A stretch of DNA of 64,000 bases from Turritopsis dohrnii (lineage: Eukaryota; Cnidaria; Hydrozoa; Anthoathecata; Oceaniidae): positions 1,550,001-1,614,000 of the forward strand of contig BQMF02000008.1 of the NCBI GenBank assembly GCA_027922465.2, read 5' to 3'. The stretch's first letter is position 1. Each line of letters starts with the position of its first letter. A model generated the notes under the pieces. The model saw only the letters and a list, made by a program, of their open reading frames with translations, did no database searches and had not been told where the DNA came from. Shown here piece after piece: positions 1 through 27,545 of this stretch. The position numbers and the translations under genes were made by a program.

Positions 1-3000
1 ATAACCATCGCAGCATTCACTAAAATTGGGTCAGGTCCGCTTGCAGACACTGTGACTTTTACGACACCACAAAATGGTATGTCAGTTATAAAGAAATAAA
101 AATCATCTATTTACATTCTATGTGAATTTCTCTTGACAATACTATTTTAGTGTTAAGATTCAAATTGTTGACTGCTGAAATAGATATGAAATACTTAAAA
201 TGCTTATAAATGCGTAGAAATGTTACATTCTATGTTAGCCTGAAAGGGTCATGTGCAATATTTTAGTTCCCAAAACAGCACCATCATCTGTCAATGGAGT
301 AGCAGGGAGCAGCTCCATGATATATTTGGAATGGCTTCCAATCCCCCCAGAAAGCTGTGAAGGAATCCTTCTCTTCTATAATGTTTCATACCAAGGCTTT
401 GATGAAGATGATTATCGTTATGGTAGTATGTACGGATACATGCTTACTGATCATGCAGAGATTGTTTCTGTCAATCTCACAAATCTATCACTGAGCACAG
501 ATTTTTCTATCATCGTTGCTGGTTGTACAGAAGCAGGATGTGGTCCAAAGACTTTACCTCTTCATATCAAAACATTGGATTTCGGTATGTCATTCTTACT
601 TATTCGTTAGTACGCAGATGTTAAGTAAAGCATTTTTACTGTTGTTTTGAATTGCAGTGGATGGTGCTTGGACTGATTGGACTCCATGGGGAGAATGCGA
701 CAAAAGTTGTGCCTTGGGGACTGAAATTCGTCAGAGATGGTGTACTAATCCTCGAGAAGATGCCGGTGGAAGACCTTGCGCTGGCGCCTCCGTTGATACC
801 AGAGACTGTAATGATTTCCCATGTCCTGGTTAGTAAAATACACAGTTGTTGATTCAAAAGTTTTAAATGAATGTTTTAAAATCCTGACAATATGATCCAT
901 ATGGAAAAACCCGGTAATTCAATAGCCGTTGTAAAATAAAGTATCGGAATTCAAATCAGTGTATATTAAAATATAAATTAAGTGAATTGTTTAAGTGAGT
1001 ATATAACGAGTGATCCAGAAAAAATTTATTATGGAGAAACCTGTTTGTTCAATAGCACTTTAAAATAAATTACGAGAATTCAAGACAAAATTATGTATAT
1101 GATCATTTTTCCTGGCTTTCATGATCTAGTTTTGGAAGATGATTTAATTTGCCATTTTAATCATTTTTTTAAAAGGATTTCTTTTCATTATGGTGAAAAT
1201 CAATTTGCCTTCCTTTTGGTTTAAAGCTTAAATCAATATTAAGATTATTTTACATGATTCCCTTGTGTATTGATATTTCAGGCTTCTATCTTTCAATACC
1301 ATCTGTCAGCTGCTCTAAAACTTGCACAGATCTTGGTGACGAATTTGATTGCATGAAAGTTGTGGAAACATTTAATGACGTCAATGTGTTCCATGGACTT
1401 ATTGACGGTGGCGACTATCGTCGTTCTCTAAACATCTCCTGCTTGACAAATCCAAGCACTGACAAGTACCAAGAAAAATTCGACCCAAGTTTTCTTGTTG
1501 ATACTGGTACTTGTAGAGGATACAAGTCTTTACCGAATATAACGAATTGTGAAATGGCAGCTGGACCTAATGTCAGAAGATTATGTTACTGTGTAGACAA
1601 AGGTATTAAGTTTAGAGACAGCGTTATAAAGTTCTTCATTGTACATTTTTTCTTATTTGCGTTGTTCCTTTTAGAAACTGCACAATATACCGAATGGGGT
1701 AATTGGGGCTTATGTACTAAAGATTGTGGAGTGGGTTATTATCGAAGGTATCGGGAATGTTTACTTGGAAGTGGCTGTAGCGGAACTTCTGAAGACAAAT
1801 CAGATTGCAATATCCACCCATGTCCAAGTAAGACAAACAATTTCACTTTCTATTTTTGTGTGGTTAAGGAGAGATATGGTGTCATTATTGCTAAGCTATG
1901 CACTTGATTTCTCCATGTTTCATTATTGAATATCACTGAACTAATTTTGTTTATTCACATCTGTCGATTAGTTCATGGGCAGTGGGGACAATGGACACCA
2001 TTCTCCAACTGTTCCATGTCATGTGGATTTGGTTCAAGAGTTCGAAGACGATTTTGTGATTCTCCAGCACCAGAATATAATGGGAGATATTGCGAAGGCG
2101 ATCAGCATACTGAAGTGATTGCTGGTTGTAATCCACAACCATGCCCAAGTAAAGTTTTCTTTAATGTTTTTGTTTTACTTTTACATTGAATTGTGAAGCG
2201 TCTGTGTGTGACATGAGAAACTTAAAGGTTTTGAACATGAAGAAGTGAGTCTATGACGTAATCATTATCTTTTCCCTTTTGTACAAAAAGCGTTTTGTAT
2301 TTAGTCCACGGTGGTTGGAGTGAATGGGGCGCACTGTCAAAGTGTAAACATTCTTGTGGTTCGAACGGTTACCGAGAAAGAAAGCGCTCTTGCACCAACC
2401 CTGTTCCAGATTTCGATGGAGATGACTGTGATGGAGATGATGTTGAACATTTGGAATGTGTACACATGCACGATTGTACGCGTAAGGGATACGTTTCTCT
2501 TTTATAAAACTACACTGCAACAAGTCGTATTCACAGCTGTTTTCTCTTTTACTGTTGTTTTATAATTTGTAATTAGCTGTCCTTATGAACTACTTGGTCC
2601 GCTTCACGAATGAGACCTGGCATTACTCCATGTACGCCATCAACAGTCACACAGCAACAGTAGCAACTGCCAAAATGAAAGACAGAGTAAGTGGAAAGAT
2701 TTTTTGTATGGTAGCATGTGGCTCACTTCATTCCTTCTAGTATAAAGATCTGCTAATAGAAAATCTCTCTCACATGTCTTATTACTTTCATTGCACTTTT
2801 GTGTTTTAGATTCATTCATTTTATAGCGATGATGTTCACCTTAATGTTAGTTTTGAAATTGAATTTCACGAGCTTCAGTAAGTGTGATACCATGCCTATT
2901 TAAAAACGTGATTTTTTGAAATGCCATTAACCACCTTTCCTTTACTGTTCATTCAATACAGCAATGTAAGCAGATTTGTACGTTCATGGAATAACACTTA

Positions 3001-6000
3001 CTTTTTAGGAAAGGGAGTATAATTGCCAACTTCACCATTCTATATGATTCGAATCCTTATACTGAAGCTTTGTACTTTCAAGACGCCATTGATAACGCTC
3101 ACTATATTGGCGATATGCCTGTTACAATGCTGTCTCTTACATCACCGCATGGTAAGTATAATCATCACCTTTTCTCTTTGAATCTCGATGAGCTCATTCT
3201 AAATCACTGACTTTTAATTCGAATGGTTTTATATTTGAGTAAGAAAGTAGCTTTTCTAAGTTTTAAGTCAAAGCAACGTTTTGATTAGTTGTTTTTTAAT
3301 TTGTTAATCATAATGTGTTAATGCTGTTTTTACATATTTTTTTATGTTATGGCAAACTACCTAGAATATACTTTTTTCATATAGTTCCCACAATCGCTCC
3401 TCCGAACGTGAAAGCTGAAACGGTCGATGAAACCTCGATCAACGTTGCATGGGATGGCGTCGATGCAATTTACTGGAATGGCGTTTCCAATGATTATTAT
3501 GTATTTTTTAGGCGTCTTGAGGATAGCTTGCCAGTTAATAGAGATTGGGATGATTTTGCCACTAGTAATACTTTTTATACTCTTTCCAACTTGAACCCTG
3601 GCACTCAGTATGGAATTCGAGTTTTGGCTGCTGTGAAAGGTGGGAATGGTATAGCATCAGAAGAGATCAAGGTTTCTACAAAAGATGGTGGTAAGTTGTA
3701 GATCGCTTATGATAAGGAACCTCTGATGCGGTGGATATCTGAAATTGTGCTGACCAAGCGTTCATCCATAGCCTTATTTTAACGAGTCCACAAACCATTT
3801 GTTGAGGTTTGGAAGATACTTCACTTGATGTTTTGTTATTGATATGTACTTATTCTATTCACGCTTAGTTCCGTTCATAAAACCTCCGAATTGTATGTAT
3901 CAAGTATTGACCTCAACCAAAATCTTTTTACAATGGGATCCCATTCCCAAATCTGAAGTTCCTGGTACGTTCGTTGGTTATGAGATAAGATACACCACAC
4001 TTTTCACAAGAATATCTCACGTCCTAACGAATGCGCCTACTTTGATGCAAAGAACTCTGTATAATTTGCGGGCAAACACGTGGTATGAAATAGAAGTGTA
4101 CGGATTTACCAATGCAGGAATTGGACCAAAACAAACATATAACATCCAAACACCAGAAGGAGGTATGACTACTTCTATATTCGCCAAGCTAGCCTTTTTC
4201 CGCCCGTTTTTTTTCAGAAAAGAAAACTTTTCGTTAGTTTTTCTCCCACAGTTTCATGATATTTTCATTGCGTTGTTTTTCTTGTGTCTGCTTTGTAGCA
4301 CCTGGTGCTCCACCGGCTAATGTGATCATGGAGGAACACATTTCGTCAACGAAACTGAAACTGAGATGGGATGCTGTGCCAGCAGAGTTCACGAACGGGG
4401 AAATAAAAGGATACATAATCACTTGCCAAAAATATCAGGAAAGCGGTCAAGATGTACCAGCTAAACAGCTTCTACATACTGTCCAACTTGACGCCTATAC
4501 TTTTAGCTACGTAATTACAGGGCTTTCTAGCTATACAACATATGAAGTGAAAATCTTGGCTTTTACAATGTACGGAAACGGGCCTTCTGTTGTCCTATAC
4601 GGAAGTAGGTGTCTGGTTTACTAATTATTCAAGAGATTTTGTTGGTGACTTGGAAAACTGAAAAATCCTTACCGTATTTCCTCTGATAAACACCGTTCTC
4701 TATTAAACGCTGCACTTATAACCAAACATTCGTAATAAACGCCGCCCTCTTACAAAAGATAGGCTAAACAAGAATAGTTTTATTTGTTTTTCCATCAACA
4801 ACTTCTTCTACCTTTGACTCAATTATAATTGATGTGTAATTATCTGCGCGGGAACATTCAAACCAAAATATAAATATCCCACTAAAATTTCCAGTCTGAC
4901 ATCTTATAAATTCCAGGCTCATAAACAGGCAACAGAAGCACTGGTCTGAGATCATTCTTCTGAAAATTCTTTTCAAATTTCCGAGTCCCACATCAGCGAA
5001 AGCAACGAAAGTTTTCATATCGTAGAAGAGAACGGTGAAATGATATTGATATTCTTTTGTAAAACATTTTTAAACGAACAATCTTCTTCTAACGTTTTTT
5101 AGGAAAAGAAAACGTTTAAATTCTTTTTGTATCTCATTTTTTCTTTTGTAATTAACGGCGTTCTCTGATGAGCGCCGCCCTCTATTAGAGGAAATACGGT
5201 ATTCATTATGTTTCAAGTCTATAGCAGAAGAGGGTTATATCACTTTTCCGTATTAATTCTTCAAGTTGTTGTTATTATTTAGGTACGTGTAAATGTCCGA
5301 TGGAGTTTTTCACGAATTGGTACAACTATCCTCCCTTTATCTCGCAAGATAAAACAACGAAAAACAACTTCACCGGATTGTTTATAGAGCTTCTCAATTC
5401 AATCGCTGTAGAGATCTGCACACCGTGTAAAACACATAATACTTCCACGGTCTTCTATAACCGAACCAAGGACGGACAACCGTCAATCAAAATTAACTTG
5501 AATAACGTGATGAACGGCATCGGTGAGAGTGTCCACTTCACTTTCCCGATCTTTAAGAAGTTTACCGAAACTCGTGTTTCCGGAAAATATCCATTTATAC
5601 CGATAATTCAATCTCAAGGCACGGCAATGATAGTTTACACAGCGCCGTTACAAACAGTTGGTTTTATCCAAATGTTGAAGGCTGTTGTTTCTGCCTGGAC
5701 TGTCATTTGTATTGCTGTGTTGATGGTGATTTTGACCGGATGGCTTCTGTTTTTTGCAGTAAGTTTTCGTTAATGATAAATGAAATGTTATATGTAGAGC
5801 TGAAGATTGGCTTATGCCGACGTAAGCAGAAACACGACAATTCGGAAATGGCCTGCCAACGAACAGCTGTTTTATCAACAATGTGCTCAAACAAAGTAAA
5901 AACAAAAACAGTTTAATTGATCGTGATTTTCTCTTCTTCTACTTTTCTATTTCCTACAAAAGATATATCATGACAAAGACCAAAGAAACGGATTCCGTCG

Positions 6001-8170
6001 ATATAAAATTTTTAAAAATTAATTGGATATTTCCATCAAAAACTGCGATGATATTTTTTGATTCCAATTTTTTGAAACACACTGTACAATGTTATCGATC
6101 AATATTTTCCTATGGATTCATTTGAAGTTTGTATTTCAAAGTTCAATTGATCATAAGAAATTACTGCATAATTTCGTTCCTTTCTTCATTTCAGCAAAAT
6201 CTTCATGATGTAATTTATATATACACAGTTCACCTAATTCACACTTTCTCTCTAAGTCAGTCACTGCTTATGCTGCAACACCACTCTCGAAAAATAATAA
6301 AAGCAAAATCTTCATGATGTTTAATATGATGAATTTGATTGTGGTCCATATCTGCTACATCAAATAAAACGTTTTCCAATCGCTTTTCTACTTCTTCGTT
6401 TGCTTTCTCCCATAGGAGCAAGGTTCGAATGTTAGCGATCTGACTCTAGATCGAAGCATATGTGGGGCTGCCGAGGGAGCCTGGACAGCATATGTTACTA
6501 TGACAACAGTAGGGTAAAGGAATTTCAACCGTGTAATGAAACATGTTAGGGGATGACAGTTTTCGTAGATATTTGTTTATGTTCTTGTTATGCATTAGGT
6601 ACGGCGATTTTGTTCCTACCACATTTTTGGCGAAATTGATCATGATTATTTGGGTGTTTTCTGGTTTTGTTATCGTCAGCATATTTAGTGGCATAGTGGC
6701 TTCAGGAATGACAATTAGCCGCATGAAAACAGAATATAAGTTGTACGGATCGACTGTAAGACTTTTTTGCTTTTTTTTGTTAAAGCTAGATCGTGAAGAT
6801 TAAGTAGATCTGTGGAATATGTGAATAGTTTTTGACTATAACATTTGATGTTGTTTAGCTAACTCACATTGGTAATGCGTGTGGTAAGCAAGTAAATTCT
6901 TTCTTACGAACAGGTTGCAGCCGTCAAGAACTCTTTCGAGTATCGTCTAGCCATTCAAAGGAATGCTAAGGTTGTCAACTACACAACTATACCAGAAGTG
7001 ATTGAGGCCGTGGGAAAAGGTGAAGCAGAGATTGGGTTGATAGATGCACTCTCAACGAAAGGCTATGAGAAGAGAATGAAGGGGTTGAATGTCCGAGTTG
7101 ACAAGATGTTGGAAGTTGTTGCTGGACATGGTGTAGTGTTATCTGGAGATGCTATTCGATTAGAAAATGATTTCAGAAGTTACGTAACAGGTCAACAGGC
7201 AGAAATCTTTGAGTTTGTTGTGGAGACATTAGGAGTTTTGCAGGTATGGGAACATCTATATTCAGAACAATTGTGGTTGTAATGTTTTCTCGTTAAATCT
7301 CTTTTATGTGCTTATATAGATGCATTTAGATTTTAAGTAGATTGCTGTGCACTGTAACCATGTTTTTTTGTTTTGCCAGCCCGAACCTGTGACGGTGGAA
7401 TCTGCTTTGTTCACAGAAGAAGAAACCACTGTAGCGATTATAGATCTGGTGATTGTGTTAGCTGGTTTATCGTTGTTTGGCATCATGTTCTGGTTGTGCT
7501 GTCGAAGGGGAAAAGACATGAAAAAGAAAGTAAAGCCGACTGGTAAGTGTGAACAATTTTCCGAGTTCCTATTATTTTTATGATTGTATTCACTAACTTG
7601 GTATGAATCTCCGTCTTTTGTGTTTGACTTAAGTATTTGTCAGAATCTTTAGTAAGTGTGAACTTAGCCACACCAGTTTTTTGCTTTTGTGCAGAATAGT
7701 AAAAACCTTTTACTTGTTTTAATTTCGAAAATGATCTGCAAAATACCAAAACAAAGAGAACTTTTGTTTCGATGATTCAACCTGAGGACATGTATTTATT
7801 CCTTGCAAAACTGTAAATGTCTGTACGCAGGTCTATTAAGATAATGAAAAAGATAGATGTTGCTTTTAAGCTGGATGTTCATTGATACTTTTACTCCTTA
7901 GATAACCAACAAAGGATTTACCAAAAACTGACAGACTTAACTACAAATACCGGATTGCGATTCTCTGAAAATTTTTCAAAGAAAGTGAATACTCTAGTCT
8001 TCAAACATCAGGAGGAAAGGATTCTATTGGACGACATGAAGCGCAACTATGTGAGGTATGCAAAAAGGGCTGGTTTATACGACTCGTTGGTGAAATCGAA
8101 TGAACGAAAGAAGAAACGAAGGAATCGAAGGAACGCTTATATGCAGCGCGAATTAGCGGACGGCACCTAG
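1..8170 (+). CDS. FN3/TSP1/SEA-domain ionotropic glutamate receptor-like channel with K+ filter (5' partial)
   Basis: Nineteen exons read by eye: 1-76, 267-584, 658-828, 1282-1602, 1675-1827, 1972-2148, 2305-2481, 2577-2686, 2810-2877, 3009-3151, 3385-3690, 3869-4162, 4299-4604, 5283-5758, 6416-6513, 6599-6755, 6914-7243, 7380-7542, 7902-8170. All introns are GT-AG and the sum (4113 nt) is 1370 codons plus TAG. Domains in the visible protein: FN3 end (1-25), FN3 (26-131), TSP1 (132-188), unknown Cys-rich domain (189-295), three TSP1 (296-464), SEA-like (465-571), three FN3 (572-873), ligand-binding S1 (874-1004), M1 (1005-1032), pore loop with TVGYGD (1063-1068), M2 (1075-1102), S2 (about 1114-1227), last membrane span (about 1245-1268), then a basic tail. 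S1 keeps an Arg (codon 5573-5575) and S2 an Asp (7043-7045) where glutamate receptors hold the amino-acid ligand. Inferred: a ligand-gated, K+-selective surface channel whose usual amino-terminal domain is replaced by adhesion modules. The 5' end lies outside the window. Confidence 0.92.
4670..5201. mobile_element. Non-autonomous DNA element in intron 13 (TACCGTA termini)
   Basis: The ends are inverted copies: TACCGTATTTCCTCT at 4670 and AGAGGAAATACGGTA ending at 5201. Subterminal motifs of the type AATAAACGCCGC occur near both ends. No coding capacity is seen and no clear target duplication. It sits between the last FN3 exon and the ligand-binding exon of the channel gene. A second copy of the family is at 55780-56183. 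Confidence 0.8.
6193..6320. repeat. 19-bp direct repeat flanking a 90-bp insert in an intron
   Basis: The 19 bases starting AGCAAAATCTTCATG occur at 6193-6211 and again, exactly, at 6302-6320. The 90 bases between end in an A-rich stretch (AAAAATAATAAA). This is the look of a small retroposed fragment with its target-site duplication, inside the intron before the pore exon. Confidence 0.6.
6416..6755 (+). other. Pore exons: K+ selectivity filter TTVGYGD split by an intron
   Basis: Exon 6416-6513 ends within the second base of a Gly codon and exon 6599-6755 completes it. The joined reading is AWTAYVTMTTVGYGDFVP, a textbook K+-channel pore loop and filter. It lies between M1 (end of exon 5283-5758) and the following hydrophobic segment. 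Cation-permeable animal glutamate receptors lack this filter. It is known in bacterial GluR0 and in the rotifer AvGluR1. The SYTANLAAF motif of ordinary animal receptors is absent from the next helix, which reads SIFSGIVASG. Confidence 0.93.
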
Positions 8171-8717
8171 TCAGATCTGAATTAATATTGCTGATTTAAT
8201 ATTTAATGAACTGTTGAATTCACAAAAAATTGTAAATATTCTACGGAAGTACAGGTCAGTGAATGTGTAATTGTAAGAGTTCCTGAAAGTTGATTTTTCC
8301 GTTTTTTAACAACTTCGTGTAATACGAGAAATACAAAAGATGAAATTCACAGCCAATCAATCAATGATTTTGCTCTGCTATAGCCGTAAAACAGCTGTCT
8401 GGTGTTCGACTTGTTGAAAGATTTCGTCATCATGTCTTGGCAACAATATTCTTGAAAATGTTGTTTACTAACACTGAGATTGCTGGAAAACAATGAAAAC
8501 TATAGCCGCATAAAAACTTTGTCTGTCAGGGAGAAGATTTCTAGTTATGAATTATACACTTACTTATGCATCCATATACACCGAGAAATAAATTTGTAAC
8601 TATTCCAATTTACGGCTAATATACCTTTCCGTCCTCTAAAATTATTAGAAATTTTATTATGGAGAATATCTTTGCATGATTATGCTTACTGATTTTCATC
8701 TATAAACTTATAGTTAG
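8171..8717 (+). other. 3' flank / probable 3' UTR of the channel gene
   Basis: There is no coding signal after the TAG at 8168-8170. An AATAAA at 8587-8592 is a plausible polyadenylation signal; no other feature is seen. Confidence 0.45.
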
Positions 8718-9378
8718 TACCTTAAGGGAAGAAATTGTTTGCGGAAGAAATTTTTGCGGAATATATTTTTGCGGGTGAATGACTCAAAAATGCCATATTT
8801 TGCGGAATAAATTTTTGCGGATGAAGACCTCAAAAGAGATTTTGCGGAATTAATTTTTGCGGATGCAACAAATTTAATAAAATCGAAAGTCGGGAAACAC
8901 GTAGTTTAGGACCTGGGTATATAACCAAACTTTAGTTGGAATGGAAAAAGCAGATTTTCGGAATAACATCTATTTTTCATCAATTAAAATATCAAAAAAT
9001 AACACTAAGCTAAAACAAACAGATAATGTAGCTGGGTCTTATCTTTGATCAGGGAAGGTCAATGTAGCGCCAGCAACTGAGAATATGACTCAGTCAAAGG
9101 GTCGTTTCTCAAAGTAAAAGCAACAGTACATTCAATAACCAAGACTTCTTTCCTTTTTCAACCCCCTTTTTCATTTTCCAAACGTTTTGTAAAGATGAGA
9201 CTTGCAGTTTATACAAAGCAAAGTGAAAAATCAATTCTTTACGGGTAAAAAATTTCAAAAATTTTGCGGAGTAAATTTTTGTGGATGAAGAATTTCGAAA
9301 ACTTTGCGGAATTTATTTTTGCAGATGACCAATATTTATTCATTTTTGCGGAATTCATTTTTGCGGATTTATTCATTT
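8718..9378. mobile_element. Repeat element with clustered TTTTTGCGGA motifs
   Basis: Two clusters of the motif (A/T)TTTTTGCGGA(A/T), about 8733-8872 and 9258-9370, all in the same orientation, flank about 390 bp without such motifs. TACCTTAAGGG at 8718 resembles the TACC(G/T)TA start of other elements in this window, but no matching right end was found. It is probably a truncated non-autonomous element; no reading frame is seen. Confidence 0.5.
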
Positions 9379-10011: not shown

Positions 10012-13000
10012 TTATTGATTTGAGTAAACCCGAGCTACGGCTTTATTAATACAATAGGAAAAACATTTTTCCGCGAACGTTTCAAACTTTTCAATGTTTT
10101 TCAAGTTGTTCGGAAGGTCATTAAAACAACCACCAGCTTGTTGGGCAAAGGAACCCTCAAAAGCGTCAGTCATGTCGATGTTATACTTGTGTTGAATTTC
10201 CGAGCGAAGTTTTCTTCCAGGTGGACGTGATTTTGTTAACTTAAGATAAGTTGGCCATGAAGGCTTGTTTAGGGCTTTGTGTGCCAATTTTACCAAGGAA
10301 AGTGAGATCATTTCTTTGACTGGTAGCCATTGCAACTTGGTAACGTCTATCTCACTGGCATGCCGTCCATACACAAAGCCAGCCGCAGCATTTTGGAGTT
10401 TCTGCAGTTTCCTTAGAAGGTACTGAGGGGCTCCAATGAACAATACGTTTCCGTAGTTAATTCTCGAAAGGATAAGAGCTTGAGCAAGTGACTTTCGAAG
10501 ACGAAAGTCGGCAGATCTTTTGAAGATTCTCAAAGACTTCAAAGTAAAGTAACAACATTGCGTTACTGAGTTGATATGACCTCTCCATGTCAGATGTTGA
10601 TGGAAACGCACTCCCAAGATTTTAATACGGTGATGTGATCAAGTTTTTGATTTTGGCTATTGATTTGCATCACTTCGTTTTGGAGATTGTGTCTTTTATA
10701 CATTTGTGAAGTCGAGAAAAGAATCACCTTCGTCTTGTTGCTATTTAAATAAAGGTTCTTATCTTCCGACCAGGTGTTCACCTCGTTCATCTCCTGTTGC
10801 ATTTTGTTGATGGTCTGGGGCAGGTCGACGACCTTCAAGCAGGGTCGTATCATCAGCGTAAACTAGATACCCAGCAGGCACCAAACGTTATACTAACGTT
10901 AGTGTTACGTTATTTCTTACGTTGTGGTAACGTTAGTGGTTGGTTAGAATGGAAGTCTTTTTTTAATTAGTATAACGTTAAATACTTACGTTAGTACAAC
11001 GTTAAATACTTACGTTAATATAACGTTCAATACTTACGTTAGTATAACGTTAAATACTTACGTTAGTCTAACGTTAGAAAGTAACATCAGGACAACGTTA
11101 AATTTCGTTAATCTACGTTGTATTAACAACATCAAAATGTTATAACATTGTAATGACTTTTGAAGTCATTATAAACAAATCCCGGTGTCCATCCCAACAA
11201 AGTAAGAAAAATGACGAAAACAGCGAATAGTCATAGAAGTTGATATTTACCTTTGATTGACAAGAAAAGCATATTTTTATGTCAATATTTACGCATGCCT
11301 AATAGAAGAAAAAGAAACAAATATAAGTGAAGGTGTTAAACGAATGCTTGTGGTTACGGCAAATTGCAATAAATGAAAATCAACGGAAATTCATGCCATC
11401 CATTCTAACCAACCACTAACGTTACCACAACGTAAAAACTAACTTAACACTAACGTTAGTATAACGTAAATTTACGAAATTTAACGTTGTCCTGATGTAA
11501 CTTTCTAACGTTGTACTAACGTAAGTAGTTAACGTTGGAGTAACGTTGGTTTTACGTTGGTAACGTTAAACCTAGAACCAACGTTAGACTAACGTTGAAT
11601 AAGCATTGGGTGCCTGCTGGGTAGGTGCTTCCACCAATGGATGAGATAGTGTTGACGTAAAGGTTAAAGAGAACTGGTCCTAAAATACTGCCTTGTGGAA
11701 CCCCAAATTCCACCCGATGAAGGTCCGATGACTTGTCGTCGATTTGTACAAATTGTAGCCGATTAGACAGATATTCTTTGAAAAGGAGCAATAGTTTCCG
11801 TGAAAAACCTAGATGATAATGCTTTCGAAAAGTCAGCTAAAATGGCAAGTTTGACCTCTCCTTTTCGCATTGCACTCAGGATGTCTTCTTTCAGTTTCAT
11901 AAGAATCGTCATCGTTGAGTGACCTCTTCTGAAACCAGATTGTTTTGGGTCGTAGAAAGATTCAGTTTCGATTAGATCGGTTAACTGTTGTAGGATTACG
12001 CGTTCAAACGCTTTAGATAATATTGGTAGAACATTGATGGGTCTGTATTCGGAGAGGGACCTTGGATTGTTGACTTTTGGAACAGGACAAATGCGACTAA
12101 TCTTCCACTCGATTGGCACTGATGAGGTGTTGATGCAGGTATTAATGATGTGTGTCAGAGGTGATGCCAGATGTTCAGCCACAGGTTTATTGAATCTTGA
12201 AGGGATGTTGTCGTAGCCAGTTGAGCAATCTGATCTCAGACCTTTTATCGCTTTTAGGACGTCGTCGTGGGTAACGTTTTGTAGGTTGTAGTTATTGGCT
12301 TTTTCAGGAAGATTGTAAATGAACTCATTTGTTAAATGTTCAGCTATTTTCCCAGTCGTGCAGGTTGCGGTATGGTTGAAGAAGTGATTAACTTTCTCAG
12401 GATCGACTTTCACGGACGTTGGATTTGGATGGAGAATTTTATTGATGACTTTCCATGTTTCGTTGCAGTTTTTGTTCAATAGCAGCTTTTTCATGAAAGT
12501 TCTTTTCGTTTTCTTAATGTTTTGTTTCAGTTTGTTTCTCACTAATTTCAGTTTCTCATGATTAGTTTCGGTTGGATTTTTTCTGTATTCAGTTCTCGCA
12601 CGATTTCGTTGACGTTGGAGATCAGTGATATTTAGATTTTTCATCCATGGAAATGGAGGTCATGTGATTTTCACTTTTCGTAGTGGTGAATGTCTTGAAA
12701 TGCACTCTGTTATTAGATTGTTAAGGATATTGACCTTGTCCGACACTTCTTCAAATACGTAAACAAGGTTGGTGGAAGTGAATTAAAATCTCTTTTATAT
12801 ACCCATGTCAAGATTTCGTTCATCTCTTATCAGTTTGTACCTTGCTTCGAACTTTGTTTTTGCTGCTTTAAAAATGCAGAAGGGCCGTCATGGTCTGAAA
12901 TCTCGTCGCAGAAAATCAAACCATGATCTATAAGCTTCATAGATTGGTTGGAGATGATATGATCAATGAGTGAGCTCGACTGTCTGGTGGGCTGAGTTCC

Positions 13001-17001: not shown

Positions 17002-20000
17002 TCAATTGTCATCAACCATATTATCATTTACATAAATTCCACGGTTATTTGTTGAATCCAATTCAAGTGAGCTTTCAGTGCCTGGCACCTCGTACATATT
17101 AATACCGCCTTCCTCACTATAACCTTTAAAATGACCAAGTTCATACTCTCGGACTTTGGTCAAAGAAAAATTACGGGATCTTCGCCTCCTCCGGTAAATA
17201 ATAAAGATCAAAATGATTACCAACAACATAACGCCTAAAACACTAAACACCACAACGTACACAATCACCTTCTTTTCTTCCGGAGTAACAGTAGTTGCAG
17301 TATTTCTGAAAGACACAGCACTGAAGGATTGATTACCAGCACTGATGTTCACCCCAGTCACCTTCAGCGCATCATCGAGTTTGCTTTGCACAGAATCTGC
17401 CGTATATGTCGACTCAATTGAATATTTTATAACAATGGAACCACACGATATGTGATCGCTTGGATAGCGGATCTGACTACTTGAAATATTTAAAATACCA
17501 GTCAAAAAGTTGCTGAAAGAATCCGTCAATTGTTGTCGTAAGACGGCATTTCCAATGATAGTTTGACAATCTCCCTCAAATGTGGCCTCACCAGCATACG
17601 TATACAAAGGCAAAACGGCTGTTGTAGAAGGAAGAAACGACATCGTTGAAGGTTGTATCAAAGATGAACTCAAGCCAGGGCTAATCGTAGTATTAGAACT
17701 TGACACAACTGCAGTAGCAAATCCAGTCGACATTGTAGGAACAGATATAAATGACAAAGTAGAAAGTCGGGAATTTGAATCAGTGAAACTTGAATGACCA
17801 GTTGTTACGGAAAGCATTAGACTGCTACCTACTTCAACAGACGTCTGAACAATCTCAGTAATATTTGTCAGTAAACGCACTGATGGAACAACCGAATTTG
17901 ATGCAGCCATTGTAGAATACACAAGAGATTGGTTAGATTCTCCATGTCGGGAGGTTGCTGATACCGCAATGTTCGAAATCGATGACACTGTTGGACTTGG
18001 TGGCACTGTTGAATCGGCGGATGACATATCGGCAGATGCGATGGTACTTGACAAATATGCGACTGAAGAAGTTATGGTATCTGGTAGTAGTAATCGGCTT
18101 GAACGATTAATTTCAATTGAAGTACTTAATACAGTCTCAGAAGTACCGTTTCCAATCGGCGAAAGTGATGTAGTAGCACTTCTTGTCGCTGTTAGAGATG
18201 GATGGACGAAGGAATGATTGACTTTTGAAGAGGAAAATCGAATAATATCACTTCCCTTTATGGAGATACCAGTGTGGATTGATTTGACTTCAGACTTTGT
18301 CAATGTATTCAGAACTGTCAATGACGTTTCATAAAATACAAAACTGCTCATTTCTGACGGAACCAATGCACGTGTTGAATTCACTACTGCGATTGGTGAT
18401 TGTAAGAGTGATTGGTTAAATCCTGGCTGAGTGGTAGTTGCTGATACTACAATGTCGGAAATCGATGCGGCCGTAGGACTTGGCTGCACGGTTGAAAGCC
18501 TGGATGACAAATTGACAGACGCAAGGTTGCTTGATAAATATGCGACTGAAGTTGTTATTGCATCTGACGGTACTAAACGGCTTGTCCGTATCGGAAAGAT
18601 GACTGAACTTGAACGATTAATTTTGATGGAAGTCCTCATTACAGTCTCAGAAGTACGGTTCCCAATTGCCGACAGTGACGTAGCCGCACTTCTCCTCACT
18701 GTTCCAGATGGATGGACGAAGGAATTGTTGGCTTTAGAAGAGGAACTTCCGATCAGAGCAGTTCTCTTGGTTGAGATGTCAATGGGAATTGTTATAGCTT
18801 CAGACTTCGTCGATGCATTCATAACTGTCAATGACGTTTCGTGAAGTACGACACTGCTCATTGCTGAAGGAACCAACGAATGTCTTGAGTTCACTGTGGC
18901 CGTTTCTGAGTACAAAAGTGATTGGCTAGTTCTTGGATACGCGGACGTTGTTGACATCGACTTGTTCGATATAGATGCCACAGTTGGACTTGGCTGCACC
19001 GTGGAATGGCTGGATGTAAAATTGAAAGATGCTATGTTACTTGATAAATATGCAACGGAAGATGTAATTGTATATGAAGGTAGCAATCGGCTCGACGGTA
19101 CTTCAGAGATGACTGATCTCGATTTTGATGTCGTCGATATGGTGGCAGAGGTATCCTTGCTATTTGGTGACATTGATGTAATATCACTTCCTCTCATTGT
19201 TTCAGAAGGATGGACAAAGGAATTGCCAGATGTGGAAGAAGAACTTCTTATCATATCACTTCTACTTGTAGAGATATCAGAGTGGATTGTTTTCACTTCA
19301 GACTTTGTCGTTGCATTCAAGACTGTTGAAGACGTTTTGTAAAGTACAACACTGCTCATTTCTGAAGGAACCAAATAACGTGTTGAGTTCAATATGGAAA
19401 TTGTTGAATACCAAAATGATTGGGTAGATTTTAGTTGCGTGGAAGTTGTTGATACTTTCATGTCCGAAATCGATACCACAGTCGCACTTGGTTGCACTTT
19501 TGTATTGGCCAACGAGAAAGTGACAGTAGTTGCAGTATTTCTGAAAGACACAGCACTGAAGGATTGATTACCAGCACTGATGTTCACCCCAGTCACCTTC
19601 AGCGCATCATCGAGTTCGCTTTGCACAGAATCTGCCGTATATGTCGACTCAATTGAATATTTTATAACAATGGAACCACAAGATATGTGATCGCTTGGAT
19701 AGCGGATCTGACTACTTGAGATATTTAAAATACCAGTCAAAAAGTTGCTGAAAGAATCCGTCAATTGTTGTCGTAAGACGGCATTTCCAATGATAGTTTG
19801 ACAATCTCCCTCAAATGTGGCCTCACCAGCATACGTATAAAAAGGCAAAACGGCTGTTGTAGATGGAAGAAACGACATCGTTGAAGGTTGTATCAAAGAT
19901 GAACTCAAGCCAGGGCTAATCGTAGTATTAGAACTTGACACAACTGCAGTAGCAAATCCAGTCGACATGGTAGGAACAGATATAAATGACAAAGTAGAAA

Positions 20001-23000
20001 GTCGGGAATTTGAATCAGTGAAACTTGAATGACCAGTTGTTACGGAAAGCATTACACTGCTACCTACTTCAACAGACGTCTGAACAATCTCAGTAATATT
20101 TGTCAGTAAACGCACTGATGGAACAATCGAATTTGATGCAGTCATTGTAGAATACACAAGAGATTGGTTAGATTCTCCATGTCGGGAGGTTGTTGATACC
20201 GCAATGTTCGAAATCGATGACACTGTTGGACTTGGTGGCACTGTTGAATCGGCGGATGACATATTGGCAGATGCGATGGTACTTGACAAATATGCGACTG
20301 AAGAAGTTATGGTATCTGGTAGTAGTAATCGGCTTGAACGATTAATTTCAATTGAAGTACTTAATACAGTCTCAGAAGTACCGTTTCCAATCGGCGACAG
20401 TGATGTAGTAGCACTTCTTGTCGCTGTTAGAGATGGATGGACGAAGGAATGATTGACTTTTGAAGAGGAAAATCGAATAATATCACTTCCCTTTATGGAG
20501 ATATCAGTGTGGATTGATTTGACTTCAGACTTTGTCAATGTATTCAGAACTGTCAATGACGTTTCATAAAATACAAAACTGCTCATTTCTGACGGAACCA
20601 ATGCACGTGTTGAATTCACTACTGCGATTGGTGATTGTAAGAGTGATTGGTTAAATCCTGGCTGAGTGGTAGTTGCTGATACTACAATGTCGGAAATCGA
20701 TGCGGCCGTAGGACTTGGCTGCACGGTTGAAAGCCTGGATGACAAATTGACAGACGCAAGGTTGCTTGATAAATATGCGACTGAAGTTGTTATTGCATCT
20801 GACGGTACTAAACGGCTTGTCCGTATCGGAAAGATGACTGAACTTGAACGATTAATTTTGATGGAAGTCCTCATTACAGTCTCAGAAGTACGGTTCCCAA
20901 TTGCCGACAGTGACGTAGCCGCACTTCTCCTCACTGTTCCAGATGGATGGACGAAGGAATTGTTGGCTTTAGAAGAGGAACTTCCGATCAGAGCAGTTCT
21001 CTTGGTTGAGATGTCAATGGGAATTGTTATAGCTTCAGACTTCGTCGATGCATTCATAACTGTCAATGACGTTTCGTGAAGTACGACACTGCTCATTGCT
21101 GAAGGAACCAACGAATGTCTTGAGTTCACTGTGGCCGTTTCTGAGTACAAAAGTGATTGGCTAGTTCTTGGATACGCGGACGTTGTTGACATCGACTTGT
21201 TCGATATAGATGCCACAGTTGGACTTGGCTGCACCGTGGAATGGCTGGATGTAAAATTGAAAGATGCTATGTTACTTGATAAATATGCAACGGAAGATGT
21301 AATTGTATATGAAGGTAGCAATCGGCTCGACGGTACTTCAGAGATGACTGATCTCGATTTTGATGTCGTCGATATGGTGGCAGAGGTATCCTTGCTATTT
21401 GGTGACATTGATGTAATATCACTTCCTCTCATTGTTTCAGAAGGATGGACAAAGGAATTGCCAGATGTGGAAGAAGAACTTCTTATCATATCACTTCTAC
21501 TTGTAGAGATATCAGAGTGGATTGTTTTCACTTCAGACTTTGTCGTTGCATTCAAGACTGTTGAAGACGTTTTGTAAAGTACAACACTGCTCATTTCTGA
21601 AGGAACCAAATAACGTGTTGAGTTCAATATGGAAATTGTTGAATACCAAAATGATTGGGTAGATTTTAGTTGCGTGGAAGTTGTTGATACTTTCATGTCC
21701 GAAATCGATACCACAGTCGCACTTGGTTGCACTTTTGTATTGGCCAACGAGAAAGTGACAGTAGTTGCAGTATTTCTGAAAGACACAGCACTGAAGGATT
21801 GATTACCAGCACTGATGTTCACCCCAGTCACCTTCAGCGCATCATCGAGTTCGCTTTGCACAGAATCTGCCGTATATGTCGACTCAATTGAATATTTTAT
21901 AACAATGGAACCACAAGATATGTGATCGCTTGGATAGCGGATCTGACTACTTGAGATATTTAAAATACCAGTCAAAAAGTTGCTGAAAGAATCCGTCAAT
22001 TGTTGTCGTAAGACGGCATTTCCAATGATAGTTTGACAATCTCCCTCAAATTTGGCCTCACCAGCATACGTATAAAAAGGCAAAACGGCTGTTGTAGATG
22101 GAAGAAACGACATCGTTGAAGGTTGTATCAAAGATGAACTCAAGCCAGGGCTAATCGTAGTATTAGAACTTGACACAACTGCAGTAGCAAATCCAGTCGA
22201 CATTGTAGGAACAGATATAAATGACAAAGTAGAAAGTCGGGAATTTGAATCAGTGAAACTTGAATGACCAGTTGTTACGGAAAGCATTACACTGCTACCT
22301 ACTTCAACAGACGTCTGAACAATCTCAGTAATATTTGTCAGTAAACGCACTGATGGAACAATCGAATTTGATGCAGTCATTGTAGAATACACAAGAGATT
22401 GGTTAGATTCTCCATGTCGGGAGGTTGTTGATACCGCAATGTTCGAAATCGATGACACTGTTGGACTTGGTGGCACTGTTGAATCGGCGGATGACATATT
22501 GGCAGATGCGATGGTACTTGACAAATATGCGACTGAAGAAGTTATGGTATCTGGTAGTAGTAATCGGCTTGAACGATTAATTTCAATTGAAGTACTTAAT
22601 ACAGTCTCAGAAGTACCGTTTCCAATCGGCGAAAGTGATGTAGTAGCACTTCTTGTCGCTGTTAGAGATGGATGGACGAAGGAATGATTGACTTTTGAAG
22701 AGGAAAATCGAATAATATCACTTCCCTTTATGGAGATATCAGTGTGGATTGATTTGACTTCAGACTTTGTCAATGTATTCAGAACTGTCAATGACGTTTC
22801 ATAAAATACAAAACTGCTCATTTCTGACGGAACCAATGCACGTGTTGAATTCACTACTGCGATTGGTGATTGTAAGAGTGATTGGTTAAATCCTGGCTGA
22901 GTGGTAGTTGCTGATACTACAATGTCGGAAATCGATGCGGCCGTAGGACTTGGCTGCACGGTTGAAAGCCTGGATGACAAATTGACAGACGCAAGGTTGC

Positions 23001-24060
23001 TTGATAAATATGCGACTGAAGTTGTTATTGCATCTGACGGTACTAAACGGCTTGTCCGTATCGGAAAGATGACTGAACTTGAACGATTAATTTTGATGGA
23101 AGTCCTCATTACAGTCTCAGAAGTACGGTTCCCAATTGCCGACAGTGACGTAGCCGCACTTCTCCTCACTGTTCCAGATGGATGGACGAAGGAATTGTTG
23201 GCTTTAGAAGAGGAACTTCCGATCAGAGCAGTTCTCTTGGTTGAGATGTCAATGGGAATTGTTATAGCTTCAGACTTCGTCGATGCATTCATAACTGTCA
23301 ATGACGTTTCGTGAAGTACGACACTGCTCATTGCTGAAGGAACCAACGAATGTCTTGAGTTCACTGTGGCCGTTTCTGAGTACAAAAGTGATTGGCTAGT
23401 TCTTGGATACGCGGACGTTGTTGACATCGACTTGTTCGATATAGATGCCACAGTTGGACTTGGCTGCACCGTGGAATGGCTGGATGTAAAATTGAAAGAT
23501 GCTATGTTACTTGATAAATATGCAACGGAAGATGTAATTGTATATGAAGGTAGCAATCGGCTCGACGGTACTTCAGAGATGACTGATCTCGATTTTGATG
23601 TCGTCGATATGGTGGCAGAGGTATCCTTGCTATTTGGTGACATTGATGTAATATCACTTCCTCTCATTGTTTCAGAAGGATGGACAAAGGAATTGCCAGA
23701 TGTGGAAGAAGAACTTCTTATCATATCACTTCTACTTGTAGAGATATCAGAGTGGATTGTCTTCATTTCAGACTTTGTCGTTGCATTCAAGACCGTCGAA
23801 GACGTTTCGTTAAGTACAACACTGCTCATTTCTGAAGGAACCAAATAACGTGTTGAGTTCAATATGGAAATTGTTGAATACCAAAATGATTGGCTAGATC
23901 TCGGTTGCGTGGAAGTTGGTGATGCTGGTAAGTCGGGTATTGATCTAATATTTGTGTTGATTGTCTTTCTTTGGGATATCCATGATGTATTTTGAGCACT
24001 TGGTAAATCTTCAATATTTCTTTTGATTATGTTGTGGTAGTTTCTTGAAGATTTTAAATC
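17002..24060 (-). CDS. Giant mucin-like single-pass membrane protein, main exon (5' exon not found)
   Basis: One uninterrupted frame of 2352 codons on the minus strand. It is extremely Ser/Thr-rich with many N-x-S/T sites, so a heavily glycosylated extracellular stalk is expected. Three copies of a 745-residue unit follow each other. Each ends in a SEA-like domain of about 100 residues with two cysteines (GDCQ and SCGSIVIKYSI), near residues 667, 1412 and 2157. After the last copy come a membrane span (about 2264-2290), five arginines and a tail with FSLTKVREYELGHF and NMYEVPG. The exon probably opens at 24060, because TTTTACATTTACAG just before it is a good splice acceptor and the ATG at 24084 lies in that intron. 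A later acceptor near 23925 is also possible, giving ASPTST, which matches ASPNST in the paralogue at 37400-39950. No signal-peptide exon was found upstream. Confidence 0.85.
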   Translation of the reverse strand, partial: DLKSSRNYHNIIKRNIEDLPSAQNTSWISQRKTINTNIRSIPDLPASPTSTQPRSSQSFWYSTISILNSTRYLVPSEMSSVVLNETSSTVLNATTKSEMKTIHSDISTSRSDMIRSSSSTSGNSFVHPSETMRGSDITSMSPNSKDTSATISTTSKSRSVISEVPSSRLLPSYTITSSVAYLSSNIASFNFTSSHSTVQPSPTVASISNKSMSTTSAYPRTSQSLLYSETATVNSRHSLVPSAMSSVVLHETSLTVMNASTKSEAITIPIDISTKRTALIGSSSSKANNSFVHPSGTVRRSAATSLSAIGNRTSETVMRTSIKINRSSSVIFPIRTSRLVPSDAITTSVAYLSSNLASVNLSSRLSTVQPSPTAASISDIVVSATTTQPGFNQSLLQSPIAVVNSTRALVPSEMSSFVFYETSLTVLNTLTKSEVKSIHTDISIKGSDIIRFSSSKVNHSFVHPSLTATRSATTSLSPIGNGTSETVLSTSIEINRSSRLLLPDTITSSVAYLSSTIASANMSSADSTVPPSPTVSSISNIAVSTTSRHGESNQSLVYSTMTASNSIVPSVRLLTNITEIVQTSVEVGSSVMLSVTTGHSSFTDSNSRLSTLSFISVPTMSTGFATAVVSSSNTTISPGLSSSLIQPSTMSFLPSTTAVLPFYTYAGEAKFEGDCQTIIGNAVLRQQLTDSFSNFLTGILNISSSQIRYPSDHISCGSIVIKYSIESTYTADSVQSELDDALKVTGVNISAGNQSFSAVSFRNTATTVTFSLANTKVQPSATVVSISDMKVSTTSTQLKSTQSFWYSTISILNSTRYLVPSEMSSVVLYKTSSTVLNATTKSEVKTIHSDISTSRSDMIRSSSSTSGNSFVHPSETMRGSDITSMSPNSKDTSATISTTSKSRSVISEVPSSRLLPSYTITSSVAYLSSNIASFNFTSSHSTVQPSPTVASISNKSMSTTSAYPRTSQSLLYSETATVNSRHSLVPSAMSSVVLHETSLTVMNASTKSEAITIPIDISTKRTALIGSSSSKANNSFVHPSGTVRRSAATSLSAIGNRTSETVMRTSIKINRSSSVIFPIRTSRLVPSDAITTSVAYLSSNLASVNLSSRLSTVQPSPTAASISDIVVSATTTQPGFNQSLLQSPIAVVNSTRALVPSEMSSFVFYETSLTVLNTLTKSEVKSIHTDISIKGSDIIRFSSSKVNHSFVHPSLTATRSATTSLSPIGNGTSETVLSTSIEINRSSRLLLPDTITSSVAYLSSTIASANMSSADSTVPPSPTVSSISNIAVSTTSRHGESNQSLVYSTMTASNSIVPSVRLLTNITEIVQTSVEVGSSVMLSVTTGHSSFTDSNSRLSTLSFISVPTMSTGFATAVVSSSNTTISPGLSSSLIQPSTMSFLPSTTAVLPFYTYAGEATFEGDCQTIIGNAVLRQQLTDSFSNFLTGILNISSSQIRYPSDHISCGSIVIKYSIESTYTADSVQSELDDALKVTGVNISAGNQSFSAVSFRNTATTVTFSLANTKVQPSATVVSISDMKVSTTSTQLKSTQSFWYSTISILNSTRYLVPSEMSSVVLYKTSSTVLNATTKSEVKTIHSDISTSRSDMIRSSSSTSGNSFVHPSETMRGSDITSMSPNSKDTSATISTTSKSRSVISEVPSSRLLPSYTITSSVAYLSSNIASFNFTSSHSTVQPSPTVASISNKSMSTTSAYPRTSQSLLYSETATVNSRHSLVPSAMSSVVLHETSLTVMNASTKSEAITIPIDISTKRTALIGSSSSKANNSFVHPSGTVRRSAATSLSAIGNRTSETVMRTSIKINRSSSVIFPIRTSRLVPSDAITTSVAYLSSNLASVNLSSRLSTVQPSPTAASISDIVVSATTTQPGFNQSLLQSPIAVVNSTRALVPSEMSSFVFYETSLTVLNTLTKSEVKSIHTGISIKGSDIIRFSSSKVNHSFVHPSLTATRSATTSLSPIGNGTSETVLSTSIEINRSSRLLLPDTITSSVAYLSSTIASADMSSADSTVPPSPTVSSISNIAVSATSRHGESNQSLVYSTMAASNSVVPSVRLLTNITEIVQTSVEVGSSLMLSVTTGHSSFTDSNSRLSTLSFISVPTMSTGFATAVVSSSNTTISPGLSSSLIQPSTMSFLPSTTAVLPLYTYAGEATFEGDCQTIIGNAVLRQQLTDSFSNFLTGILNISSSQIRYPSDHISCGSIVIKYSIESTYTADSVQSKLDDALKVTGVNISAGNQSFSAVSFRNTATTVTPEEKKVIVYVVVFSVLGVMLLVIILIFIIYRRRRRSRNFSLTKVREYELGHFKGYSEEGGINMYEVPGTESSLELDSTNNRGIYVNDNMVDDN
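17288..23920. repeat. Three near-identical 2235-bp tandem repeats inside the mucin-like exon
   Basis: The word ACAGTAGTTGCAGTATTTC starts at 17288, 19523 and 21758, exactly 2235 bp apart, and 2235 is 745 codons. Copies differ only at scattered bases (for example AATGTGGCC at 17579 against AATTTGGCC at 22049). The third copy fades at about 23920. Inside each copy are four weaker sub-repeats of about 483-510 bp (marked by ATGTTCGAAATCGATG-like words near 17969, 18452, 18962 and 19460), so the array is a higher-order repeat. Confidence 0.95.
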
Positions 24061-25326
24061 CTGTAAATGTAAAACGTATTTCATATGAGGTTTTCCTTAG
24101 TTGGCGTTTATTGTAGAATTAGTTAATAGAATCGAATATCGTATTTCTCGGAATTGGATTCTGCAGAATGCGTGAAATCTGTTGTTATGAAGATGTGAAT
24201 ATATAAAGATAAGTTAAGAAATTTTTAGGTATTTAGTGAAGATTGAAGTTGAAGATTTAAGACTGTCATCGTAGTTTAAATGAAATTATAGTATTGGAAA
24301 GGAATTTAAAGTTATTTCACTATTCATCTGTTTCTAAATCACCGTTTGCAAACTTATGTGGATTACATGTTCTATTGGAATATATTCTAATTTTCGTTAA
24401 GCGACTGTTACATCAGAAAAATTTAATTATGCTATATGAAATTAACGCAAAGTTTTTACACTTAAAATAGTCAAAATTGACTTTTTTGTTCCCCAGATAT
24501 TGCCATTTAAAATTTTTCCTCAAAGCTTGATCTCCATGACAACATGGCATCACAATATTCCAGAAGCAGTTGTTTACATACAAATATCCTAATTTATCCT
24601 TATTTAGACCCTTATATAGATGGAGATTATCTCCATCAGGGCAAACAAAATTTAGAAAACGGAACAGTTTTTACTGCATGTAATTTAAGATGAAATTTAC
24701 CATCGTAACAGTGTTAGATGCTGAGATATAATAGCAATGCGGATTACGGGCGTTATTCATTATGCATTATTTTGCAAACATAATAATGCCATACAATGCG
24801 CATTTTGTTTCTCGATAATGTACTATTAAAGGGGATTTTAAAAACAGACCTTTTAATAAATATCATGAAGTAGAAGACATTCTCTATTTGTTTACATTAA
24901 ATACATCAGGTGTGATTGTTTCTTTTTTTCACTTCACGCTATAGTCTAGACAGTTAAATAAAATGAAGTATCACGTCGCGACATGTTTCTTAGCAACCAT
25001 ATGTTGAAGATGATTATATTATTCTAAAATTTTAGTTACTACTTATCCTGATGATGTGTAGTTTTATAAATAAAAAGTATTTCTTCTTTGTAATAAGTTA
25101 TAGTGAGTTTGAATAAAAGAAGACATTCCATAGATTTTTTTCACGTAGAATACGGGATGCATATTTCATTTTAAAGGAGAACATAAAAAAATAGAAATAT
25201 AAAAGATACATTAACTTGAGCAACGAAGAAGAGCACTACAGAGATAAACATGATTAGACATGTATACTAAAACATCTTACAAAGCTTCGTTAACGAAAAT
25301 ATACGAGAAATAACTACCTTAATTAA
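24061..25326. other. Upstream region of the mucin-like gene; no exon identified
   Basis: AT-rich. An upstream exon with a signal peptide is expected on the minus strand here or further right, but no ATG plus hydrophobic run plus GTAAG could be picked out. TACCTTAATTAA at 25315 looks like the left end of an element that is interrupted by the one starting at 25327. Confidence 0.4.
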
Positions 25327-27531: not shown

Positions 27532-27545
27532 ACCTCTGCAATTTC

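What the first reader, a model, noticed from the sequence alone, without database searches (positions are those of the whole stretch)
5283..7542. A glutamate-receptor-type channel with a potassium filter in an intron-rich animal gene
Seen: a split ligand-binding domain (S1, S2) around M1, a pore loop reading TTVGYGD, M2, and a last membrane span after S2. Known: animal ionotropic glutamate receptors lack this filter; bacterial GluR0 and rotifer AvGluR1 have it. Inferred: an inhibitory, K+-selective, amino-acid-gated receptor. I know of no described animal receptor that pairs this pore with TSP1/FN3/SEA ectodomains.
Basis: partly seen in the sequence, partly recalled or inferred. Interest (0 to 1): 0.92.

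Follow-up and report, generated by a model that had tools for sequence, protein, structure and literature searches.

The report
Jellyfish-type glutamate-receptor-like potassium channel family
This animal gene joins a sticky, adhesion-type outer part to a glutamate-receptor-like clamshell and a potassium-channel pore, and it belongs to a large family in corals, anemones and hydroids that I could not find described; if it works as its parts suggest, a bound molecule would quieten the cell by letting potassium out.

Summary
Nineteen exons (18 GT-AG introns) on the + strand form one open frame. Exons 5283-5758, 6416-6513, 6599-6755, 6914-7243, 7380-7542 and 7902-8170 encode S1, M1, a TTVGYGD pore loop, M2, S2, a last membrane span and a basic tail, behind TSP1 and FN3 domains. 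Two Clytia proteins share the layout; 5 of 5 paralogs read have the same intron inside the filter. A model of one Clytia relative's channel part (pLDDT 89) has the clamshell fold; the GluR0 core has the highest Z (19.5), tied with other binding proteins.

The gene is not alone. The same genome holds at least 28 groups of single-open-frame relatives with GYGD, and relatives occur in Hydractinia, Clytia, Actinia, Porites and Oculina. They form one group apart from bacterial GluR0-type channels; a span after S2 is seen in 75 of 77 measured cnidarian-type rows, 0 of 54 bacterial ones.

Not supported: amino-acid gating (the S1 arginine is not conserved; no Pfam ligand-binding model matches). SEA is not confirmed. 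Ligand, K+ selectivity and inhibition are inferred. Ten open-literature searches listed no description.

The parts
1..76 (+). end of an FN3 exon (gene starts left of the window)
   Evidence: GT donor at 77, frame continues; rest of the exon in L065 matches fn3
267..584 (+). FN3 exon
658..828 (+). TSP1 repeat 1 exon
   Evidence: Pfam TSP_1
1282..1602 (+). cysteine-rich exon without Pfam match, conserved in the two Clytia proteins
1675..1827 (+). TSP1 repeat 2 exon
1972..2148 (+). TSP1 repeat 3 exon
2305..2481 (+). TSP1 repeat 4 exon; donor after 2481 keeps the last cysteine (my first model ended it at 2475, same frame)
2577..2686 (+). SEA-like stretch, exon 1 of 3 (no Pfam match)
2810..2877 (+). 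SEA-like stretch, exon 2 of 3
3009..3151 (+). SEA-like stretch, exon 3 of 3
3385..3690 (+). FN3 exon
3869..4162 (+). FN3 exon
4299..4604 (+). FN3 exon
5283..5758 (+). S1 half of the ligand-binding clamshell and M1
   Evidence: profile and fold comparisons
6416..6513 (+). pore helix, first part of the potassium filter (...MTTVG)
   Evidence: same intron in 5 of 5 paralogs read
6599..6755 (+). rest of the filter (YGDFVPTT) and M2
6914..7243 (+). S2 half of the clamshell, with the Asp of GLIDA
7380..7542 (+). last membrane span (M4-like)
   Evidence: hydropathy
7902..8170 (+). basic C-terminal tail and TAG stop

Best explanation
The gene encodes a single-chain receptor channel of a cnidarian family related to bacterial GluR0. 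Outside the cell, TSP1/FN3 domains bind partners or matrix. Next to the membrane, S1 and S2 form a two-lobed clamshell of the substrate-binding-protein fold. Between them sits an inverted potassium pore (M1, loop entering from the cytoplasm, M2) with a complete TTVGYGD filter; a third span after S2 puts the basic tail in the cytoplasm. Four subunits would assemble; a small molecule (or another input on the outer part) closes the clamshell, pulls M2 and lets K+ out, so the cell is silenced. Shown here: the gene structure, its conservation, the predicted fold of a close relative, the filter, the last span, the family and its tree. Inferred: tetramer, ligand gating, K+ selectivity, inhibition, membrane orientation and the adhesive role of the ectodomain.
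For: One open frame over 19 exons; whole-length relatives in Clytia; Ion_trans_2 above its Pfam cut-off (30.8 vs 22.5 bits), pore nearest to solved Kv4 channels. Profiles of the whole channel part align with the anthozoan group over 391 columns and the compact group over 376. With the pore removed, S2 still matches compact (E 1.2e-9, 161 columns), anthozoan (6.7e-6, 69 columns) and bacterial groups (2e-4, 46 columns); S1 matches anthozoan (2.2e-5, 42 columns) and, less, bacterial (1.7e-3, 26 columns); reversed controls 0.018 or worse, S1-against-S2 controls 0.006 or worse. The AlphaFold model of the Clytia relative (77-row alignment, pLDDT 89.3, pTM 0.78) has highest Z to the GluR0 core 1ii5 (19.5, 3.1 A, 210 residues), with AvGluR1 LBD 4io2 at 17.8 and an AMPA receptor LBD-TMD at 18.0 but 10.5 A. 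T[VL]GYGD in 31 of 31 family ORFs of 250 aa or more read, and the filter in 5 of 5 exon-split paralogs.
Against: The S1 arginine that binds amino-acid carboxylates is absent from both Clytia proteins and from 3 of 5 exon-split paralogs, and shifted in the window, so ligand gating could be lost or the ligand may be no amino acid. The S2 aspartate is Asn in paralog C64. S1 of the window family against the compact group alone (E 0.01) is no better than the best control (0.006). GluR0's lead in fold is a tie within 1 Z with a glutamine-binding protein (18.9) and a sensor-kinase clamshell (18.7), so the fold class is shown, not GluR0 kinship. No match to PF00497 or PF10613. 28 of the 77 model rows are bacterial GluR0-type, which may pull the model; with the two Clytia rows alone it failed (pLDDT 37). 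Lig_chan is below its cut-off (23.7 vs 30.8). One sequon lies in the M1-pore loop, which should be cytoplasmic. No recording, expression or RNA data.
Confidence: 0.68

Rival explanations
1. The clamshell no longer binds a small molecule. The protein is a K+ channel held or gated by its adhesive ectodomain (cell contact, matrix, stretch), the S1/S2 fold being a structural relic.
For: Loss of the S1 arginine; large TSP1/FN3 ectodomain conserved in Clytia and longer still upstream of the window (5 of 8 pieces match fn3).
Against: The compact relatives lack the ectodomain but keep S1, S2 and filter, so the core is kept without it; the S2 aspartate stays in the window, both Clytia proteins and 3 of the 4 paralogs whose S2 was read.
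Confidence: 0.22
2. Like arthropod ionotropic receptors in role: a chemoreceptor repertoire for food or conspecific cues, expanded in tandem and tuned to non-amino-acid ligands, acting by K+ efflux. (Compatible with the best explanation; it names the role.)
For: Many divergent members with conserved pore and variable S1/S2; cluster of 7 on contig C86; 28 groups at 80% identity among 30 ORFs.
Against: No expression or ligand data; the window gene's ectodomain suggests a different job from the compact ones.
Confidence: 0.4
3. An ordinary voltage-gated or leak K+ channel wrongly joined to neighbouring exons.
For: Best solved-structure sequence match of the pore is Kv4; some database names say 'Potassium channel domain-containing'.
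Against: No voltage-sensor segments in the frame; same joins in two Clytia proteins and same intron in 5 of 5 paralogs; S1/S2 similarity without the pore.
Confidence: 0.02

Closest known systems
GluR0 (Synechocystis) and bacterial GluR0-type channels
   Same: S1-M1-P-M2-S2 order, TVGYG filter, clamshell fold (1ii5 highest Z, tied within 1 with other binding proteins); GluR0's inverted pore topology is from PMC13099474 (passages)
   Different: A span after S2 was found in 0 of 54 measured bacterial rows (GluR0 lacks NTD, M4 and CTD: PMC6385376, passages); no ectodomain; the two bacterial rows scanned match PF00497, the cnidarian ones scanned do not.
AvGluR1 of the rotifer Adineta vaga
   Different: AvGluR1's LBD is solved with amino acids bound (entry titles); its full sequence was not compared here; no TSP1/FN3 part known to me (recalled).
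Animal iGluRs (AMPA, kainate, NMDA, delta, epsilon)
   Same: clamshell, three spans plus pore loop, span after S2
   Different: They lack GYG (recalled); own-genome iGluR L001 has the S1 arginine motif and SYTANLAAF and no GYG. The window gene has neither that motif nor an iGluR-type N-terminal domain in the part seen.
Voltage-gated K+ channels (Kv4, KCNQ)
   Same: pore loop and M2 sequence
   Different: no voltage sensor; pore lies inside a split extracellular domain.

Membership tests
GluR0-type (K+-filter) ionotropic glutamate receptors | S1 and S2 halves of a substrate-binding-protein clamshell flanking M1-P-M2 | tested here: met
GluR0-type (K+-filter) ionotropic glutamate receptors | TxVGYG potassium filter | tested here: met
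   TTVGYGD across exons 6416-6513 / 6599-6755
GluR0-type (K+-filter) ionotropic glutamate receptors | only two spans, no M4, no ectodomain | tested here: not met
   third span at 7380-7542; TSP1/FN3 part
GluR0-type (K+-filter) ionotropic glutamate receptors | amino-acid-binding arginine in S1 | tested here: not met
   not conserved in the family: an arginine nearby but shifted in window, C60, C18 and two C241 copies; none in P0009, P0010, C64, C115, C8:827k. By alignment only, no bound structure
Animal iGluRs (AKDF, NMDA, epsilon) | span after S2 (M4) | tested here: met
Animal iGluRs (AKDF, NMDA, epsilon) | non-GYG filter and SYTANLAAF after it | tested here: not met
   translation
Animal iGluRs (AKDF, NMDA, epsilon) | Pfam Lig_chan above its cut-off | tested here: not met
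   23.7 bits against 30.8
Animal iGluRs (AKDF, NMDA, epsilon) | leucine-binding-protein-like N-terminal domain | tested here: inconclusive
   FN3/TSP1 in the window and FN3 in 7 kb upstream; the N-terminus was not reached
Any ligand-gated K+ channel | ligand-evoked, K+-selective current | not testable with these tools
   needs recordings
Voltage-gated K+ channels | four-span voltage sensor before the pore | tested here: not met
   only three hydrophobic segments in the 496-aa part, S1 before the first

The most novel reading that the evidence does not exclude
Cnidarians keep an ancient branch of glutamate-receptor-like channels that never lost the bacterial potassium filter but gained the M4 span: a surviving intermediate between GluR0 and animal iGluRs. 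Hydrozoans expanded it into dozens of genes, an inhibitory (hyperpolarising) chemosensory repertoire, and fused one branch to an adhesive ectodomain so that contact and chemistry together silence a cell.
Probability: 0.3. Interest if true: 0.93.

Novelty: new variant of a known kind. Interest (0 to 1): 0.84.

Why it matters
K+-filter members of the glutamate-receptor superfamily are reported from bacteria and, in what I could find, one rotifer. A family found in hydrozoans and anthozoans with the filter of GluR0 and an M4-like span makes the proposed path from K+ channel plus binding protein to iGluR directly testable, and offers candidates for fast ligand-gated K+ inhibition, which animals are generally thought to achieve through chloride channels or G proteins (recalled). 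The fused TSP1/FN3 ectodomain turned up in my searches only in this genome and in Clytia.

Tried and rejected
First structure job with two rows (A3): pLDDT 37, discarded. First protein search with the 407-aa channel part (8 hits, bacterial-looking except one protist-like pore) missed the animal relatives, since only proteins of 0.55-1.75 times the query length are admitted; the full-length query with a region found the Clytia proteins. Sequence search of PDB by the two-row profile: the 60 of 265 rows shown are potassium-channel pores; NCBIfam gave only weak matches; PHROGs gave pore matches to phrog_7872 and a Kef-type family. A chance-splice reading was rejected. L057 (a voltage-gated-channel-like ORF) was dropped from the family, and L037 (an ORF starting inside the pore) from the 30-row set; that set was picked by the filter pattern, but one search shows that no family ORF of 300 aa or more in those loci lacks it. 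L006 was translated on the wrong strand and is not used. For the last-span count the bacterial set leaves out P0058, P0059 and P0065 (the last two counted as other cnidarian-type), P0068, P0079, P0085 and P0112. The tree used 51 chosen rows; its protist row P0112 has a long branch and six rows have an odd letter make-up. Horizontal transfer against ancient retention could not be decided: too few other eukaryotes. The species was not identified; it is probably a hydrozoan and, by 41% identity to P0009, probably not C. hemisphaerica.
Full report
WHAT IS THERE. The window is animal DNA: contig C8, positions 1550001-1614000, of an unnamed 435.9-Mb genome in 891 contigs. On the + strand, 19 exons make one frame with a single, terminal stop; the two other frames of the same join hold 78 and 96 stops. 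All 18 introns are GT-AG. My first model ended one exon at 2475; a donor six bases on, at 2481, keeps the last TSP1 cysteine and the same frame and is the better choice (1371 codons). The gene starts to the left of the window; in the 7.1 kb upstream (L065), 5 of 8 pieces tested match FN3 at E 1.6e-4 or better, 2 of them above Pfam's cut-off. The N-terminus was not reached. Inside the window Pfam finds four FN3 and four TSP1 stretches.

THE CHANNEL PART. The last 496 residues carry S1, M1, a pore helix and TTVGYGDFVPTT, M2, S2, a further span and a basic tail. The filter itself is split by the intron 6514-6598, with GG|G as the split codon. Pfam calls the pore Ion_trans_2 (30.8 bits, cut-off 22.5) and Ion_trans (27.2, cut-off 25); Lig_chan scores 23.7, under its cut-off of 30.8. 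By sequence the nearest solved pores are Kv4 channels (E 4.9e-8). No Pfam ligand-binding model (PF00497, PF10613) matched the window protein or the cnidarian relatives scanned (P0009, P0010, P0012, P0015, P0035, P0042, P0049, P0053, P0055), which may be why databases name them 'uncharacterized', 'Fibronectin type-III domain-containing', 'Ion channel' or 'Potassium channel domain-containing'.

IS THE JOIN REAL. Searching with the full protein and the channel part as region gave 3 hits at E 0.01 or better among 4007 candidates: P0009 and P0010, both Clytia hemisphaerica (a hydrozoan), and P0011, which shares only the pore. The two Clytia proteins align with the window protein from the TSP1/FN3 part to the tail (A1); TTVGYGDFVPTT, GLIDA and many cysteines are invariant. 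In the window's own genome the channel part gives 91 matches (86 of 177 candidates scored). In 5 of 5 exon-split paralogs that I read (C60, C18, C64, C115, C8:827k) an exon ends in ...TT[VL]G or STVG and the next starts YGD, with a GT donor inside the glycine codon and an AG acceptor one base before the tyrosine codon, as in the window. A near-copy of the gene's 3' half lies inverted about 107 kb away on C8, 94-99% identical in the stretches compared.

A LARGE FAMILY. Besides exon-split relatives, the genome holds relatives in single open frames. In the loci chosen, I found 32 ORFs of 250 aa or more: 31 are family members, all with T[VL]GYGD, and one (L057) is a voltage-gated-type channel. The loci were chosen by similarity to a query that includes the pore, so this is not an unbiased sample. 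Thirty ORFs of 300 aa or more fall into 28 groups at 80% identity; two pairs are near-identical. Seven sit in one cluster on C86. A profile of eight of them (A5) found 230 proteins at E 0.001 or better, 120 listed, among 7998 scored. The listed ones begin with compact proteins, most without a species name (named: Hydractinia symbiolongicarpus P0015, Clytia P0035), then anthozoan ones (Actinia tenebrosa P0049, Porites lobata P0052, Oculina patagonica P0053), a further Clytia protein P0055, and bacterial GluR0-type channels (PF00497 with a K+ pore). I call the unnamed ones cnidarian-type by similarity. The genome also holds classical iGluRs without GYG: seven of the eight loci fetched were read in the right frame and none shows GYG (L004 and L008 are exons).

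LIGAND RESIDUES. GLIDA's aspartate, at the place of the residue that holds the amino group in iGluRs (recalled), is invariant in A1, present in C60, C18 and C115 but Asn in C64, and lines up with D in anthozoan and bacterial rows; by a motif search the 30 compact ORFs have D in 14, N in 14, A in 1, not found in 1. The serine at the start of the S2 helix is invariant in A1. The S1 arginine is not conserved: both Clytia proteins, C64, C115 and C8:827k lack it; window, C60, C18 and two C241 copies have an arginine nearby. A crude pattern for the bacterial arginine motif fits 38 of 55 bacterial rows and 2 of 30 compact ones. An amino-acid ligand is thus not established.

TOPOLOGY AND LAST SPAN. 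Ectodomains and sequons in S1 and S2 suggest that both lie outside; three spans then put the basic tail inside and the loop on the cytoplasmic side, as reported for GluR0. Sequons also occur in the M1-pore loop and the tail, so they are weak evidence. A hydrophobic span after S2 is found in 3 of 3 split, 28 of 29 own compact (30 rows), 35 of 36 compact database (37 rows), 6 of 6 anthozoan and 3 of 3 other cnidarian-type rows: 75 of 77 measured of 79. In bacterial rows it is found in 0 of 54 measured of 55 (threshold 1.6 on the Kyte-Doolittle scale, 19 residues). So the family combines the filter of GluR0 with an M4-like span, as AvGluR1 is said to do.

TREE. In a 51-row tree (IQ-TREE), the 13 bacterial rows form one side (100/99), all 37 cnidarian-type rows one group (98/95), exon-split members one clade (100/100) with the window next to P0009 (97/96); split, anthozoan and other rows group together (99/95); the compact group is one clade (100/94). 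I chose the rows, and the root is set on bacteria.

WHAT IS KNOWN. From passages: GluR0 is K+-selective and lacks NTD, M4 and CTD (PMC6385376), with N- and C-terminus outside (PMC13099474); AvGluR1 has eukaryotic architecture with the K+ filter (PMC12332018; PMC3483616). Two surveys of animal iGluRs discuss cnidarian NMDA, AKDF and epsilon types. PMC6307864 has no occurrence of 'potassium' or 'GluR0' (passages); in what I saw of PMC12226733 (12 of 15 passages; part 1 of 2 of section 6) no cnidarian GYG group is mentioned. A survey of cnidarian voltage-gated K+ channels has no occurrence of glutamate, fibronectin or thrombospondin (PMC9989356). Ten searches of the open library listed no paper on such a family; rows seen of papers found: 5 of 5; 6 of 6; 20 of 65; 20 of 88; 20 of 140; 8 of 9; 5 of 5; 20 of 46; 15 of 234; 10 of 10. 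Subscription papers, Janovjak 2011 included, were not read.

VERDICT. Real, well supported as a gene and as a family, a new variant of the K+-filter glutamate-receptor kind.

Noticed in passing
C8:1445447-1449004 (L009, L012, L014, L022, L023) against window 3782-8417: Inverted near-copy of the gene's 3' half about 107 kb away, 94-99% identical: recent inverted duplication or an assembly artefact.
   Followed up: partly
window 17002-24096, minus strand: One 2364-codon open frame of Ser/Thr-rich mucin-like repeats in units of about 2.2 kb with a membrane span near the end.
   Followed up: no
window 37400-39166, minus strand: Second mucin-like, Ser/Thr-rich open frame with a membrane span near its end.
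   Followed up: no
window 10012-12659, 44572-47820, 50862-54106: Open frames that look like reverse transcriptases and other parts of mobile elements (impression, not searched).
   Followed up: no
window 26971-27543, minus strand: Open frame resembling a transposase of the ISXO2 kind (impression from sequence, not tested).
   Followed up: no
window 8740-9370: Repeats of TTTTTGCGGA type downstream of the gene, perhaps a small mobile element.
   Followed up: no
P0112 (687 aa, mmetsp/eukprot): A protist protein with a TTVGYGD pore set in a long extracellular-looking protein; a possible further eukaryotic branch, long branch in the tree.
   Followed up: partly
L039, L040, L041 (C120): Three compact members with a shortened pore helix and ITLGYGD in place of TTVGYGD.
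   Followed up: no
P0045: A compact member whose filter reads FTLGYND; perhaps a changed or dead pore.
   Followed up: no
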